Both the position numbers and the translations under genes were made by a program. The notes below the pieces were generated by a model. That model saw nothing but the letters and a program-made list of their open reading frames with translations, made no database searches and was not told where the DNA came from. Below are positions 12,408-29,764 of a stretch of 48,522 bases of DNA, in pieces (the first letter of the stretch is position 1; each line of letters opens with the position of its first letter). Origin of the DNA: Candidatus Nitrosocosmicus sp. (lineage in GTDB: Archaea; Thermoproteota; Nitrososphaeria; Nitrososphaerales; Nitrososphaeraceae); assembly GCA_025934495.1 (NCBI GenBank), contig JAICXY010000013.1, positions 1 through 48,522 of the forward strand, in the 5' to 3' direction.

Positions 12408-13377
12408 TCATATCAAGATTAAATCTTTTTGTTCTGAAATATCAGATATCTTGTTTTTAAAATCTGTAAATGATTGATAATATTTTAGGATAAATAGATC
12501 TCGTTTTGCAATATTCCATATCTCCTCCATTACCATAAATTCGGGTGATGCCGTTGGAAGATATACAGGTATCAAAGAATCCTTTTTTTCTTCAAGATAC
12601 TTTAACACATTCTTTGATTTATAATGAGGAGGCGATGCTTTATCCATGAACAAATAGCATTCTGGGAATTTATCATGTATTAGTTTAGATAATCAAGAAG
12701 AAATGTATCGCCATTAAATTTGTCATACTGCCTGAATAGTTGCTTACCTCCAAGACAGAGGGCGCCAAAAATACATGAATGTTTATGTGAACCTGTTACT
12801 CTAACTATAGATCTTTTATCTTGCTTAATCCAAACGCATCTTACAAGAGAATCATAAAAAAAGATTGATTCATCCAGTGATACTATGGCAAATCCATCTT
12901 GCTGCTGCTGCTGCTGCTGCTGCTGCATATCCACAAATATCTGTTCTGTCTTTTTTTGAATGCCTTTTTTTCCTCTGGAGATGCAGTATTAACATGTACC
13001 TTTCTTGGCACCTTCTTCTGTTTGAATCCCCATTTTCGAAGAATACGGTATATGTGAGTATAATGATATTTTATTCCACTTTTCTTTACAATTAACTCTT
13101 GTACCTGTTTTGTGGTCCAGCCTTGGCTGTTTTCTTTTAGTTCTTTCTTAATTTGGTAACTTGTCTCTTCTGATAGTTCGGACGGTCTGCCAGATTTTGC
13201 TTTATCCTTTAGTCCTTCCAAGCCGTCTATATCAAATCTTTTTAACCAATCAAAAGCCCACGGATTGCTTCGATGCATTTCTTTTACAATGCGAAAAGGA
13301 ATTTGTCCGTCTTCTCGTACTTTGATGATCAGTAGCAGTCTTTCCTTTACCTTTGGATCATTTTCTTTTTTATACAA
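12408..13377 (-). pseudogene. IS630-family transposase split by two frameshifts
   Basis: Three consecutive frames make up one protein. 13377-12883 holds the HTH region (FDWLKRFDIDGLEGLKDKAK, GRPSELSEE, then GWTTKQVQELI, IYRILRKWGFKQKK). 12934-12680 holds the first catalytic Asp (IVSLDESIFFYDSLVRCVW). 12653-12408 holds the second Asp and the Glu (FMDKASPPHY, MVMEEIWNIAKRDL). The DDE triad is therefore still readable. One A missing from the run at 12951-12957 and one from the CTAAAC stretch near 12690 would each restore the frame. The start is TTG at 13377. Confidence 0.85.
12902..12925. repeat. (CTG)8 trinucleotide run coding polyglutamine in the IS630 transposase
   Basis: Eight perfect CTG units on the plus strand are CAG codons on the minus strand. 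With the following CAA they encode nine glutamines just before DGFAIVSLDES. The run sits between the HTH part and the DDE core, a linker position where length change is tolerable. Confidence 0.9.
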
Positions 13378-13551
13378 CTACCAATTTGGATTTGGTCGGA
13401 GGCATTGAGAACAAATAGAATAATACAAGGATATAGATAGCTTTTGTGTTTTATGATGAAAACTACGGTAAACTGTTTAGTATATTTGTGCTGTTTTGCT
13501 GCATAATTCCTATAATCTTTGATTTTACTATTTGTTTTGCCTAAATAGATA

Positions 13552-13740
13552 TCATATTATCATATAAGATGCTTTCAGCATCATTTCTCGTATTATATTT
13601 TTCAGTCTAACTGAATAAACATACTCTCCAAACATTCGCTTTATAGAAGAAAACACTGTTTCTACAATCCATCTCTTTCCATCGCTTACAATATAATCCT
13701 TCTTCCACCCTTGTGGCAACTCATTTTTCTTCTTATTGCA
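13552..13740 (-). pseudogene. C-terminal fragment of the IS5-like (DDE_Tnp_1) transposase
   Basis: It reads NELPQGWKKDYIVSDGKRW, then IVETVFSSIKRMFGEYVYS and REMMLKAS, ending at the TGA on 13552-13554. RWxVExxFSSxKRxFGE contains the third catalytic residue (Glu) of DDE_Tnp_1. The terminal-repeat variant TGCTGTTTTGCTGCATAATTCC near 13490 marks the right end of the element. The rest of the gene is lost. Confidence 0.75.
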
Positions 13741-13766
13741 TTGCAGATAGATTTCCCACTATCGAA

Positions 13767-14435
13767 TCACTTAAATTTTTTTTGAATGTTTTTAAATAAT
13801 CTCATAATTTCTTCAGTTAGTTGTGACTCTCTTCTATATGTTCTTAGTATTACGCCTTGTTTATCCAAAATTTCAAGGGCCATAGTAGATAAATCAAATC
13901 CTTCTCTTTTCAAGAAAAATATTTTTTCTGGGTTTAATTTATCTAACAAATAAACTAATTCTACATATTCCCCACCCCTTGTGAGTTCTCTATGTCTTAT
14001 AAAAAAAATAGATGTTGAAGTGGATCCTATGAATTCTAATTTTTCTAATATTCCCAATTTTACAAAATCTATTACATTATATTCTTTTCTTAGATGATTT
14101 ATTATTTGGTTATCGATGCTATCTTGTTCTGATATATGAATATCTATTACATCTCCTATCGATAACTCTTCCAATTTATATAATGTCGTCTTATTTTCTC
14201 TATATCTTTCAACTATTAATGTAAATTTTTTTGCTTCATTTTTATTATCCACGTGATCAACTACATAGATTTCGACATTATTTAGTAATAGAACTAAAAC
14301 TACATTATCCAAACCCATATAACACTCGGAGATATTTTCTCTAAGATAATACAAAACTTGTTCTGTTTTAGGATCATAACTTCCCAAAAGCAATATAATC
14401 CAATAACTAGAATCAGGATATCGATCTTCTGTCAT
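13767..14435 (-). CDS. Unrecognised 222-residue protein, last gene of the winged-helix cassette
   Basis: The protein is soluble and alpha/beta by pattern. It starts with a hydrophobic strand (YWIILLLGSYDP), then LYYLRENISE, VVLVLLLNNVEIYVVD, and a late segment GGEYVELVYLLDKLNPEKIF, FLKREGFDLSTMALEILDK. Strand-helix alternation and the GGEYVEL-type segment recall Rossmann-like or nucleoside-deoxyribosyltransferase/TIR-like folds, but I cannot assign one. It begins 6 bases after the stop of the 88-residue gene and is surely co-transcribed with it. Base composition is as AT-rich as its partners. Confidence 0.75.
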   Translation of the reverse strand: MTEDRYPDSSYWIILLLGSYDPKTEQVLYYLRENISECYMGLDNVVLVLLLNNVEIYVVDHVDNKNEAKKFTLIVERYRENKTTLYKLEELSIGDVIDIHISEQDSIDNQIINHLRKEYNVIDFVKLGILEKLEFIGSTSTSIFFIRHRELTRGGEYVELVYLLDKLNPEKIFFLKREGFDLSTMALEILDKQGVILRTYRRESQLTEEIMRLFKNIQKKFK

Positions 14436-14441
14436 AGAAAG

Positions 14442-14708
14442 TTATGTATTTGATTCGGGTGTGATTTTGACTTTAATTGGTTTCAAGTTTTTATCGATTG
14501 ATATTGTAAAGACGCCTTTTTCCGATTTATCGTTTTTATACATAGTTTTATAATTATACTCCCCTGATACTTCGTATACATCATTGATGGATTTGTTTAA
14601 CTCATTGATTATAACATCAGAATCTGTAATTAACCCAAGGGAGCGAAATACTTTTATTATTTCGATGATTTTCCTTTTAATTTGGCCTTCATCAATAGTG
14701 GCATACAT
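14442..14708 (-). CDS. Unrecognised 88-residue protein, middle gene of the cassette
   Basis: This is a small soluble protein with a helical N-terminal half (EGQIKRKIIEIIKVFRSLGL) and a strand-rich C-terminal half (KGVFTISIDKNLKPIKVKI). No motif is recognised. It lies 7 bases downstream of the winged-helix gene and 6 bases upstream of the 222-residue gene, which implies one transcript. Its size next to a regulator would fit an adaptor or antitoxin-like partner, but this is only a possibility. Confidence 0.7.
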   Translation of the reverse strand: MYATIDEGQIKRKIIEIIKVFRSLGLITDSDVIINELNKSINDVYEVSGEYNYKTMYKNDKSEKGVFTISIDKNLKPIKVKITPESNT

Positions 14709-14715
14709 ATTACTA

Positions 14716-15015
14716 TCACTCAGTTATTTCTTTAAATTCAGATAAAAGATCTTCATTTAACTGGTTAGTCATATATACAAATTTTTCGCCTTCATTGATA
14801 CGTTTGATATATTTTGATTCTAAAAGTGCTTTCAAATGAAAATGTAATGTATTGGGATTTATCTTTCCTAATTTCGATTCCATAAAATCCTTTATTTCAG
14901 TCCATGTTGCTTGTTTGTTTTTCCAAATTATAAATATAATCATTATTCGATAAGGATTAGATAATGTAGAATGCTTGTCTGTAATGAATTTTATCTTTTC
15001 TAATAATTCTACCAT
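14716..15015 (-). CDS. ArsR-like winged-helix transcriptional regulator
   Basis: The 99 residues have a wHTH layout: STLSNPYRIMIIFIIWKN, a recognition-helix region GKINPNTLHFHLKALLESKY, and a wing KRINEGEKFVYMTNQL. The TLxFHLKxL pattern is that of ArsR/archaeal HTH_20-type regulators. No metal-binding cysteines are present. It is the first gene of a three-gene cassette. A perfect palindrome lies 35 bases upstream over the expected transcription start, so it probably represses its own operon. The ATG at 15015 follows the TATA box by a normal distance for a short leader. Confidence 0.85.
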   Translation of the reverse strand: MVELLEKIKFITDKHSTLSNPYRIMIIFIIWKNKQATWTEIKDFMESKLGKINPNTLHFHLKALLESKYIKRINEGEKFVYMTNQLNEDLLSEFKEITE

Positions 15016-15049
15016 TTCATATCCTAATATCTAACAAATTACACAAATA

Positions 15050-15073
15050 TTAACTTAATTGTAATTAAGTTAA
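15050..15073. promoter_or_regulatory. Perfect 24-bp palindromic operator candidate
   Basis: Two 11-bp arms, TTAACTTAATT and AATTAAGTTAA, flank a central GT. It lies between the TATA box (15087-15095) and the ATG (15015), over the likely transcription start. That is the place for an archaeal repressor to block RNA polymerase. The downstream gene is a dimer-type winged-helix regulator, so autoregulation is the simplest reading. Confidence 0.7.
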
Positions 15074-15086
15074 CTGCAATTAATGG

Positions 15087-15095
15087 ATTATATAT
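15087..15095 (-). promoter_or_regulatory. Probable TATA box of the winged-helix cassette
   Basis: On the minus strand the site reads CATATATAA. Transcription would begin about 25 bases downstream, near 15065, inside the palindrome. Confidence 0.5.
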
Positions 15096-17029: not shown

Positions 17030-18844
17030 TTGGTAATATCTGAATCGATCAAATCACAGGTAATACAAAAATATCTTGATGGCAAATCAAGAGATCAAAT
17101 ATCTAGAGAAACTGGAATATCAACAGGCAAGATATCCAATCTAATCAAAGATTGGAAAGATGGTATAGATATACCCAATATAGAAGAAGTTAGGGAATTT
17201 GCAATTTCAGTTAAAAAATCAGGTATGTCTATGGGACAGTGTGCCAGAGGTTACAGAATGGCACAATTGATGGAAAATCTAGGAATTGCAGATGATACTG
17301 GCGATAATGAAGATGAAGATGGTGATAGTAGTATAACTATGGACTCAAAATATATCGAGTTTTCCTCTTTTGTACAGGATATTTATCTTGGTTGCAAAAA
17401 ACTAAAGATACTTCCATCTAGCATATTTTCATGGATTAAAGATTTACTTGATTGTCAGTTTCAATCGGACTACGATAACTCAATTCCTTTTATTGATCAA
17501 CAGCAGCAACAGCAACAGCAAAATGAGAAAGAGAATGAATTACCTATATTCAGTTCAAAACTAAAAAAAGATGATACATTAGCATCGGAAATCAAAATAA
17601 TACCATTTATATCGCAAATATCCTACTATATCACTCAAAAGAAAAAAGAATATGGTAAATTAGAAAATTATCAAAAAAACCTAAAAGACGATTTAAAAAA
17701 ATTAGAGATACAGAAAAATAAAGTAACATATAATCTTAACCAACTAAATCAAAATGAAAAGTTTGTACTGTCTTATATAGAGTGGTTTTATGATCTAGAA
17801 AGCACACTATGGGAAACTTTTTCTATTAAATTAAAAGATGATATATTCAGTTTTTGTCAACTTATCAAAGATTTCAAAGAGAAAGGATATGATGCTCATA
17901 AAATAATAAAAGAGTATTTAAAATCATTATCCATTAAACTAGAAATAAAAACATGTGAAGCTGATATTGCAACGCTCTCAAACCAAAGAGCATCTTTGAA
18001 TAATTCTGTATTATCTTTGGAATCTCGTGTTAACATGCACAAACAAACTCTTGATATTTATTCTAGGCTTGAAGCAATGAGTTTTGGACTAAAAGAACTA
18101 AATCAATTATGGCTTACTATTTTGGAAATAGCTGGCGAAAATAATATTCCAATGTATGAAGCAGTTTACAAATTTCTCAAAGATGTGGATGAACAATACA
18201 ACAACAAACTTGGATTTGAATCCAAAGTACAGGAAAAAAAGAATGAACTATTTAGTTTAAAAAACCAGTTAAATTCTGATAGATTGGCAATGCAGTTTAT
18301 ACCATATGTAGTACCAACTTTGCAGCATCTTTTTCAAAATGGAGTTACAGAAGAAGATATAATTAATATGAATCATCTAGTTACAAAATTTGCAAAAAAT
18401 AGTTTTCATTTAAATCAAAGTGATAATCATAATATCAATAAAGATAGCAGTTCAATTAGTAATAATAGTAATAATATAGATAGAACAAAGTATTGGAAGT
18501 TATTCATAGATCATTTGGAAAAATTACAAGATATCGCATTAGAGATAAGAAAACAAATAGACAATCGAGATAAAATACAAAAAGAGGTTAACGATATAAA
18601 TAGACAAAAACAAGAGATTTATGCTCAATACCAAAATGCAATTTCTTTTATAGGCACACTAAATAATAAAATTTCCTATATCAATGGGTTTATCGATTAT
18701 TTTAACAAAGATATAAATAATAAAATTAAATTATCTTCCGGATTTTTATCTTTGCCTGTTTTCATTATAGTATATAAAAATATAGGAAAAGGAAAAGGAA
18801 AAAAAGATGATGAAGATAAAGACATAGAAACAAATAAGAAATAA
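17030..18844 (+). CDS. HTH / long coiled-coil protein, 604 residues
   Basis: The start is TTG at 17030, with no ATG in frame before the HTH. Residues 1-45 are a resolvase-like helix-turn-helix (IKSQVIQKYLDGKSRDQISR, TGISTGKISNLIKDW). Then come a conserved-looking segment to about 90 (EFAISVKKSGMSMGQCARGY) and an acidic linker (DDTGDNEDEDGD). Eight glutamines lie near 159-166, in mixed CAA/CAG codons. A long coiled-coil region covers about 205-565, with a weakly hydrophobic LSLPVFIIVYKN and a charged tail at the end. There is no nuclease or ATPase motif. The next gene overlaps by one base. A DNA-binding structural or segregation-like role is an inference. Related proteins seem common in Nitrososphaeria (recollection). 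Confidence 0.8.
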   Translation: MVISESIKSQVIQKYLDGKSRDQISRETGISTGKISNLIKDWKDGIDIPNIEEVREFAISVKKSGMSMGQCARGYRMAQLMENLGIADDTGDNEDEDGDSSITMDSKYIEFSSFVQDIYLGCKKLKILPSSIFSWIKDLLDCQFQSDYDNSIPFIDQQQQQQQQNEKENELPIFSSKLKKDDTLASEIKIIPFISQISYYITQKKKEYGKLENYQKNLKDDLKKLEIQKNKVTYNLNQLNQNEKFVLSYIEWFYDLESTLWETFSIKLKDDIFSFCQLIKDFKEKGYDAHKIIKEYLKSLSIKLEIKTCEADIATLSNQRASLNNSVLSLESRVNMHKQTLDIYSRLEAMSFGLKELNQLWLTILEIAGENNIPMYEAVYKFLKDVDEQYNNKLGFESKVQEKKNELFSLKNQLNSDRLAMQFIPYVVPTLQHLFQNGVTEEDIINMNHLVTKFAKNSFHLNQSDNHNINKDSSSISNNSNNIDRTKYWKLFIDHLEKLQDIALEIRKQIDNRDKIQKEVNDINRQKQEIYAQYQNAISFIGTLNNKISYINGFIDYFNKDINNKIKLSSGFLSLPVFIIVYKNIGKGKGKKDDEDKDIETNKK

Positions 18845-28984: not shown

Positions 28985-29764
28985 ATGAAAGTTACTTACG
29001 AACTAAACCCACCCAAAATCTTTAATGATTTAACCATCAATATCAATACATTAAATGATGAAATTGACAAATTTGTTTACAGATCACAGATAATATTAAA
29101 ATATGTAAATGCATTACATATTACAGATTCGGTACTTGGTGTACCAAGAATTTCGAGTATTCATGGAGCTTCAATAATTTTGAAGAATATTAAAAATGAA
29201 AAAATAATACTAAGCTGTAGTATAAGAACAAGAGACAGGAACATCAACTCAATAATACAATCTGTAACTCAGGCAATTTTTTTAAAAATAAACGACATTT
29301 TATTTGTAATGGGAGATAAGCCTCTATTATACAATAACATCACTCCAGAAAAACTTTCAAAACCAACAGACACTATAAGTACACTCAATTCTTTAGGTTA
29401 TAATAAATTGATAAATTTAAATTTATCAATACCAAATAAAATATTAAATTCTAGCATAATTACCAATAAAATTCAATCCAATCCATATGGATTTATCACA
29501 CAATCAATTAATTCTTTGGAAGAAGTAAAAAAATTAAAAAGTTTATTAAATCCTCATCAAATAAAATTGATTCCTTGTATAATGATCCCTTCTGAGAAAA
29601 ATACCAAGGCAGCAAAAATGATAGGACTAAACTGGGAAGAATACAAAGATGATGTATTAGAATTTATTTTTGAAATTGGAAAACTTGTTGATCATATTCT
29701 AATTTCATCACCAAATGATTTTAATGAGGGAGTCAATATATTAAAAAAGATAAAAAACAGTTGA
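28985..29764 (+). CDS. Methylenetetrahydrofolate reductase-like (MetF family) protein
   Basis: The 259 residues look like a compact FAD/TIM-barrel MetF-like protein. YELNPPKIF at the start recalls the SxExFPP motif with the catalytic Glu. ALHITDSVLGVPRISS, ILSCSIRTRDRNINSI and DILFVMGDKP match the cofactor-binding strands (usually LALxGD). The late part (GFITQSINSLEEV, LIPCIMIPSEKN) matches the barrel's end. It probably reduces a C1 carrier for methionine synthesis. Length is short compared with bacterial MetF (about 290). Confidence 0.75.
   Translation: MKVTYELNPPKIFNDLTININTLNDEIDKFVYRSQIILKYVNALHITDSVLGVPRISSIHGASIILKNIKNEKIILSCSIRTRDRNINSIIQSVTQAIFLKINDILFVMGDKPLLYNNITPEKLSKPTDTISTLNSLGYNKLINLNLSIPNKILNSSIITNKIQSNPYGFITQSINSLEEVKKLKSLLNPHQIKLIPCIMIPSEKNTKAAKMIGLNWEEYKDDVLEFIFEIGKLVDHILISSPNDFNEGVNILKKIKNS

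What the first reader, a model, noticed from the sequence alone, without database searches (positions are those of the whole stretch)
13767..15073. Three-gene cassette of a winged-helix regulator and two unknown proteins behind a perfect palindrome
Genes of 99, 88 and 222 residues are separated by only 7 and 6 bases. A perfect 24-bp palindrome (11-bp arms around GT) covers the expected transcription start, between a TATA box and the regulator's ATG. The two downstream proteins match no family I know. The 222-residue one has strand-helix alternation recalling Rossmann or TIR-like folds. The cassette lies in an IS graveyard yet has intact frames while nearly everything around is broken, which suggests selection. 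A self-regulated stress, defence or toxin-antitoxin-like module is a reasonable but unproven idea.
Basis: partly seen in the sequence, partly recalled or inferred. Interest (0 to 1): 0.8.

Follow-up and report, generated by a model that had tools for sequence, protein, structure and literature searches.

The report
Self-regulated archaeal three-gene stress or defence operon
In a soil ammonia-oxidising archaeon, three small genes form a real, patchily distributed operon found in distant archaea with the same gene order and almost the same repressor-binding site; the largest protein resembles enzymes that cut nucleotides, so the operon may be an unrecognised stress or defence module, though no activity has been shown.

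Summary
In detail: intact genes of 99, 88 and 222 codons (minus strand, 13767-15015) and a 24-bp palindrome (15050-15073). The trio recurs in the same order in six other archaeal genomes, three of them from other classes of the phylum (222-aa protein 33-44% identical to the window's); distribution is patchy (5 of 70 family genomes). Upstream of the regulator in all seven loci where that DNA is available (one with one mismatch) lies AASTTAA-N6-TTAASTT, 27-38 bp before the start codon. It occurs once in the host's 3.56-Mb genome; two of the seven sites were found after the motif was written down. In most loci it abuts a TATA-like box, so autorepression is the best reading. The 222-aa protein matches no sequence family. 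Its model (pLDDT 85) is Rossmann-like, with conserved SYDxxT after strand 1 and TRGGExxE after strand 3, as in the TIR/deoxyribosyltransferase/SLOG class; deoxyribosyltransferases, DNPH1 and MilB are among its structural matches, but GTPases and VWA domains score similarly. I propose an autorepressed accessory operon whose effector binds or cleaves a nucleotide. Decayed copies and nearby integrase or toxin-antitoxin genes fit a conflict or stress role. Catalysis, substrate and the 88-aa protein's role are unproven.

The parts
15050..15073 (.). Operator: 24-bp palindrome TTAACTTAATT-GT-AATTAAGTTAA; conserved core AACTTAA-N6-TTAAGTT at 15052-15071
   Evidence: conserved upstream of the regulator in 7 of 7 homologous loci with that DNA available
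15046..15053 (-). Weak TATA-like box (TTAATATT, 6 of 8 to YTTAWAWA) abutting the operator; a stronger AT box TATATAAT lies upstream at about 15087-15094
   Evidence: clearer TATA boxes at the equivalent place in homologues, inferred
14716..15015 (-). 99-aa winged-helix regulator; PF03965 Penicillinase_R above cut-off, HTH_20 just below; conserved NPNTLxFHL element; no cysteines
14442..14708 (-). 88-aa small protein, predicted helix plus four-stranded beta meander (pLDDT 82); no known family
13767..14435 (-). 222-aa Rossmann-like protein, predicted TIR/NDT/SLOG-type nucleotide-binding domain or N-glycosidase with a beta-meander insert; motifs SYDxxT (residues 19-24) and TRGGExxE (152-159)
   Evidence: PMC9503650
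13550..13765 (-). Transposase C-terminal remnant immediately 3' of the operon (not part of the module; the 222-aa gene is full length beside it)

Best explanation
An autorepressed accessory operon of TACK archaea. Best-supported step (comparative evidence): the winged-helix protein binds AASTTAA-N6-TTAASTT at its own promoter, next to or over the TATA/BRE region, and keeps the operon off. Inferred: an unknown signal, or the 88-aa partner, releases the repressor. The 222-aa effector, a Rossmann-like protein of the TIR/deoxyribosyltransferase/SLOG type, then binds and probably cleaves the N-glycosidic bond of a nucleotide (NAD+, NMP or dNMP), with an invariant Glu of TRGGExxE as candidate catalytic residue. 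The 88-aa protein probably restrains the effector or couples it to the repressor. Use in stress or anti-virus conflict is the most likely biological role. Separate confidences: operon plus autoregulation 0.85; nucleotide-binding TDS-type fold 0.6; catalytic N-glycosidase 0.4; conflict or stress module 0.45.
For: Same-order trios in G209, G248, G072, G384, G373 (regulator cut by the contig end) and G523 (regulator with an in-frame TAG, effector cut by the contig end). Operator in 7 of 7 loci with upstream DNA, 27-38 bp before the start codon; shuffles give an equal or better match 0 of 2000 times in six loci and 2 of 2000 in the seventh; G523 and G532 were found after the motif had been written down. 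One operator in the whole host genome. TATA-like box at the operator's edge in most homologues. Regulator element NPNT..FHL..L invariant in all seven. Fold model pLDDT 85; best viral-library match is a nucleoside 2-deoxyribosyltransferase (E 3.7e-4), and DNPH1 and MilB N-glycosidase match with probability 1.00. Motif positions fit the TIR-DrHyd-SLOG class as described in PMC9503650. Purifying selection: dN/dS 0.21. Patchy distribution, decayed copies in G100 and G223, an integrase or HEPN/nucleotidyltransferase pair next to some copies.
Against: No sequence profile links the 222-aa protein to NDT, TIR or SLOG (hhalign against archaeal NDTs probability 1.2%). In PDB, GTPases and VWA domains score as well as NDTs. 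The effector is missing from the G532 locus although regulator, small protein and operator are there. No defence-family match. Few homologues (about 10 loci).
Confidence: 0.5

Rival explanations
1. Autoregulated toxin-antitoxin module: the 222-aa protein is the toxin, and the regulator and/or the 88-aa protein the antitoxin that also represses the operon.
For: Compact autoregulated operon, patchy presence, decay in relatives, neighbouring TA genes in L023 and L050; G532 keeps regulator and small protein without the effector, like an orphan antitoxin.
Against: Three genes instead of two; no match to TA or defence libraries; toxicity untested.
Confidence: 0.3
2. Nucleotide housekeeping or salvage operon: a DNPH1-like hydrolase for damaged or excess nucleotides, induced by its substrate through the winged-helix repressor.
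For: Structural matches to DNPH1 and MilB and phage NDTs.
Against: Patchy presence, decay and strong divergence even between members of one genus (37-48% identity) are unusual for housekeeping; no linked salvage genes.
Confidence: 0.2
3. The 222-aa protein is a catalytically inactive nucleotide sensor that, with the small protein, controls the repressor; the output lies elsewhere.
For: Inactive members of the TIR-DrHyd-SLOG class act as sensors (PMC9503650). The operator is unique in the host genome, so any output must be through this operon or protein contact.
Against: Invariant acidic residues in TRGGExxE across classes look catalytic; no further operator-controlled gene in the host.
Confidence: 0.25
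4. Chance cassette of leftover genes in an IS-rich region without a shared function.
For: Transposase remnants on both sides; decayed copies elsewhere.
Against: Conserved order, operator and invariant residues across classes; purifying selection.
Confidence: 0.03

Closest known systems
Nucleoside 2-deoxyribosyltransferase / DNPH1 / MilB N-glycosidases (Pfam PF05014 and relatives; DrHyd superfamily)
   Same: [quoted passage not shown] Foldseek probability 1.00 with several members.
   Different: No detectable sequence profile similarity; an extra beta-meander of about 55 residues between helix 1 and strand 2; always in the operon with a small protein, and with a winged-helix regulator where that DNA is held.
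Haloarchaeal DUF7509 (PF24349)
   Same: Weak, below-threshold matches of two family members over the C-terminal third (E 0.03 and 0.12).
   Different: Cut-off not met; no DUF7509 hit in relatives of the host; haloarchaeal gene neighbourhoods could not be inspected.
BlaI/MecI/CopY-type repressors (PF03965) and ArsR-like HTH_20
   Same: Window regulator exceeds the PF03965 cut-off; consensus exceeds HTH_20; palindromic operator at its own promoter.
   Different: No BlaR1-type sensor protease nearby; different operator sequence (from general knowledge); archaeal promoter context.
Regulated prokaryotic immune operons, e.g. CBASS with a WYL-domain repressor (PMC9122588)
   Same: General logic, taken from the abstract: a transcription factor associated with an immune system is proposed to control it.
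   Different: Different regulator and effector families; immunity not shown here.

Membership tests
TIR-DrHyd-SLOG (TDS) class of Rossmannoid domains | Three-layer alpha/beta sandwich with central five-stranded sheet | tested here: met
   AF2 model pLDDT 84.7: strands 11-18, 121-126, 142-147, 172-177, 196-200 with alternating helices, plus a beta-meander insert. Sheet order was not inspected.
[quoted passage not shown]
   S19, Y20, D21 and T24 invariant in 7 of 7; feature defined in PMC9503650
[quoted passage not shown]
   TRGGExxE (152-159) invariant, directly after strand 142-147; correspondence of the Glu to known catalytic Glu inferred, no superposition done
TIR-DrHyd-SLOG (TDS) class of Rossmannoid domains | N-glycosidic bond hydrolysis/transfer or nucleotide binding | not testable with these tools
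   needs biochemistry
Nucleoside 2-deoxyribosyltransferase family PF05014 | Profile match above cut-off | tested here: not met
   no PF05014 match for any member or consensus; hhalign probability 1.2%
Nucleoside 2-deoxyribosyltransferase family PF05014 | Same fold | tested here: inconclusive
   NDT is the top viral-library hit and DNPH1/MilB reach probability 1.00, but small GTPases and VWA domains score similarly in PDB
DUF7509 (PF24349) | Profile match above 27 bits | tested here: not met
   14.2 and 12.3 bits for two members
BlaI/MecI repressor-sensor system | PF03965 repressor | tested here: met
   31.4 bits against cut-off 22.6; homologue L004 only 17.8 bits
BlaI/MecI repressor-sensor system | Linked BlaR1-type sensor protease | tested here: not met
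   none recognised among neighbouring ORFs in window or homologous loci
Type II toxin-antitoxin system | Autoregulated compact operon | tested here: met
   (inferred from conservation; binding not measured)
Type II toxin-antitoxin system | Toxic protein neutralised by a partner protein | not testable with these tools
   needs expression experiments
Known anti-phage defence systems | Match to a PADLOC model for the effector | tested here: not met
   no effector match in 4 members or the consensus

The most novel reading that the evidence does not exclude
A previously undescribed archaeal immunity or dormancy module, spread across TACK archaea, in which a winged-helix repressor at a conserved TATA-adjacent operator holds down a TDS-type NAD+/nucleotide-cleaving effector with a dedicated small partner protein.
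Probability: 0.3. Interest if true: 0.75.

Novelty: new variant of a known kind. Interest (0 to 1): 0.55.

Why it matters
Few small regulated effector operons are described for ammonia-oxidising archaea, whose defence and stress genes are poorly known. This one comes with a sharp, cheaply testable prediction (a 20-bp operator shared across archaeal classes) and a concrete effector hypothesis (a nucleotide-cleaving Rossmann protein missed by the family libraries used here). If active, it would add a divergent branch to the TIR/deoxyribosyltransferase/SLOG enzymes used in conflicts.

Tried and rejected
GTPase or VWA reading of the top PDB hits: rejected, since the 222-aa protein lacks a P-loop (GxxxxGK[ST]) and a DxSxS MIDAS motif by inspection. 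Direct sequence homology to archaeal NDTs: hhalign negative. DUF7509 neighbourhoods in five haloarchaeal plasmids: no hit. Viral and plasmid carriers: none in viral contigs or plasmids (one divergent member as query). PHROGs: only weak generic matches for the winged-helix protein, nothing convincing for the effector. Structural relatives of the 88-aa protein: only weak NTF2/cystatin-like matches, E above 0.07. RNA hairpin role of the palindrome: not more stable than shuffles (z -0.48). Metal sensing by cysteines: the regulator has none. Remaining E 0.003-0.01 profile hits look like chance (e.g. L011 lies in a histidine kinase), and G300 at 1.4e-4 is a short match with stops. The dN/dS comparison of the G100 remnant was out of frame and is ignored, as is the 4-codon small-protein comparison with L005.

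Full report
What is there. The window is one contig of a 3.56-Mb genome (G000) whose relatives include Candidatus Nitrosocosmicus and other Nitrososphaeraceae. On the minus strand lie a 99-aa winged-helix gene (14716-15015), an 88-aa gene (14442-14708) and a 222-aa gene (13767-14435), spaced by 7 and 6 bases. A 24-bp palindrome sits at 15050-15073. The immediate flanks are transposase remnants, but the 222-aa gene is full length compared with its homologues.

The trio is conserved. A protein search over 300 genomes of the class found the 222-aa family in 5 including the host, and profile searches added other classes. Neighbourhoods show the same order, winged helix, small protein, Rossmann protein, in G209/L019 (Ca. 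Nitrosocosmicus), G248/L021, G072/L020 and G384/L023 (Methanomethylicota). In G373/L024 the regulator is cut by the contig end. In G523/L022 (Ca. Caldarchaeum) the regulator reading frame holds one TAG and the effector is cut by the contig end. G223 keeps the tail of the small protein and a truncated effector. G100, a single-contig genome, holds a decayed remnant of all three genes. G532 keeps regulator and small protein but no effector. Presence is sparse: five of 70 family genomes including the host and the truncated G223 copy (the other listed hits are weak), and 1 of 40, 1 of 7 and 1 of 44 in the other classes. Identities between two members of one genus (window and G209, 37-48%) are about as low as between genera, which suggests horizontal movement (inference; core-gene identity was not measured). 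An integrase lies beside the trio in L021 (Pfam) and probably in L020 (by eye, no Pfam match); a HEPN/nucleotidyltransferase pair precedes it in L023 and a PIN/AF2212-like pair follows in L050.

The operator. Reading the upstream DNA of five loci side by side gave AASTTAA-N6-TTAASTT. The search for it then found an exact copy upstream of the G523 regulator, and a copy with one mismatch upstream of the G532 regulator, neither of which had been used to write the motif. In all seven loci the best site ends 27-38 bp before the start codon; an equal or better match in shuffles of the 150-bp upstream stretch occurred 0 of 2000 times in six loci and 2 of 2000 in G532. For the five loci that defined the motif these counts are not independent evidence. 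G384 has two copies. The motif occurs once in the host genome, here. In most loci a TATA-like box starts at the operator's downstream edge (-28 to -40 from the start codon), so a bound repressor would block TBP/TFB (inference). In the window that box is weak and an upstream TATATAAT is an alternative. The winged-helix element NPNT..FHL is invariant across classes, in keeping with a constant operator.

The 222-aa protein. No Pfam, NCBIfam, PADLOC or PHROGs family matches it convincingly; two members show sub-threshold DUF7509 matches. The AlphaFold2 model (pLDDT 84.7, pTM 0.82) is a Rossmann-like alpha/beta domain with a beta-meander insert. In the viral library the first hit is a nucleoside 2-deoxyribosyltransferase (E 3.7e-4); in PDB, DNPH1 and MilB hit with probability 1.00 though with modest TM-scores and behind GTPases and other Rossmann-like folds. 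The invariant residues S19-Y20-D21-x-x-T24 follow strand 1, and T152-R-G-G-E-x-x-E159 follows the strand that corresponds to strand 3, the two places that define the nucleotide-processing TIR-DrHyd-SLOG class (PMC9503650). This is a fold-and-motif argument; sequence profiles do not confirm it.

The small protein is predicted as a helix followed by four antiparallel strands (pLDDT 82), with only weak NTF2/cystatin-like matches. Its constant place between repressor and effector suggests a binding partner, which is inference.

Selection. For the 222-aa gene, window against its nearest relative (G223; itself truncated) gives dN 0.26, dS 1.22, ratio 0.21; most other pairs are saturated at synonymous sites.

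Reading. Strongly supported: a conserved, autorepressed operon. Moderately supported: a nucleotide-binding or N-glycosidase-like effector. Plausible: a stress or conflict role, from patchiness, decay and neighbours. Unknown: inducing signal, substrate, role of the small protein.

Noticed in passing
L050 / L056 (G532): Regulator plus small protein with a one-mismatch operator but no 222-aa gene, followed by a DUF5678/retropepsin-like pair and an AF2212-like/PIN toxin-antitoxin-like pair.
   Followed up: partly
L055 3850-4330 (G100): Decayed copy of the trio (regulator N-terminus missing, TGA in the small protein, effector cut after about 20 residues); a transposase tail similar to the one at window 13550-13765 lies about 0.8 kb upstream (L047 251-595).
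   Followed up: partly
L051 1483-1743 (G627): An 86-aa protein weakly similar to the small protein (E 3.4e-4) encoded inside a ribosomal-protein gene cluster.
   Followed up: no
window 12898-12927 and 17498-17521: Trinucleotide repeat runs: (CTG)n inside an IS630-type transposase fragment and a CAG/CAA run coding polyglutamine in the 604-aa ORF 17030-18844.
   Followed up: no
window 29407-29430: A second perfect AT-rich palindrome (arms of 11 or more) inside the ORF 28985-29764; probably chance.
   Followed up: no
L022 4449-4769: The Caldarchaeum regulator frame contains one TAG stop; could be a real nonsense mutation or an assembly error.
   Followed up: no
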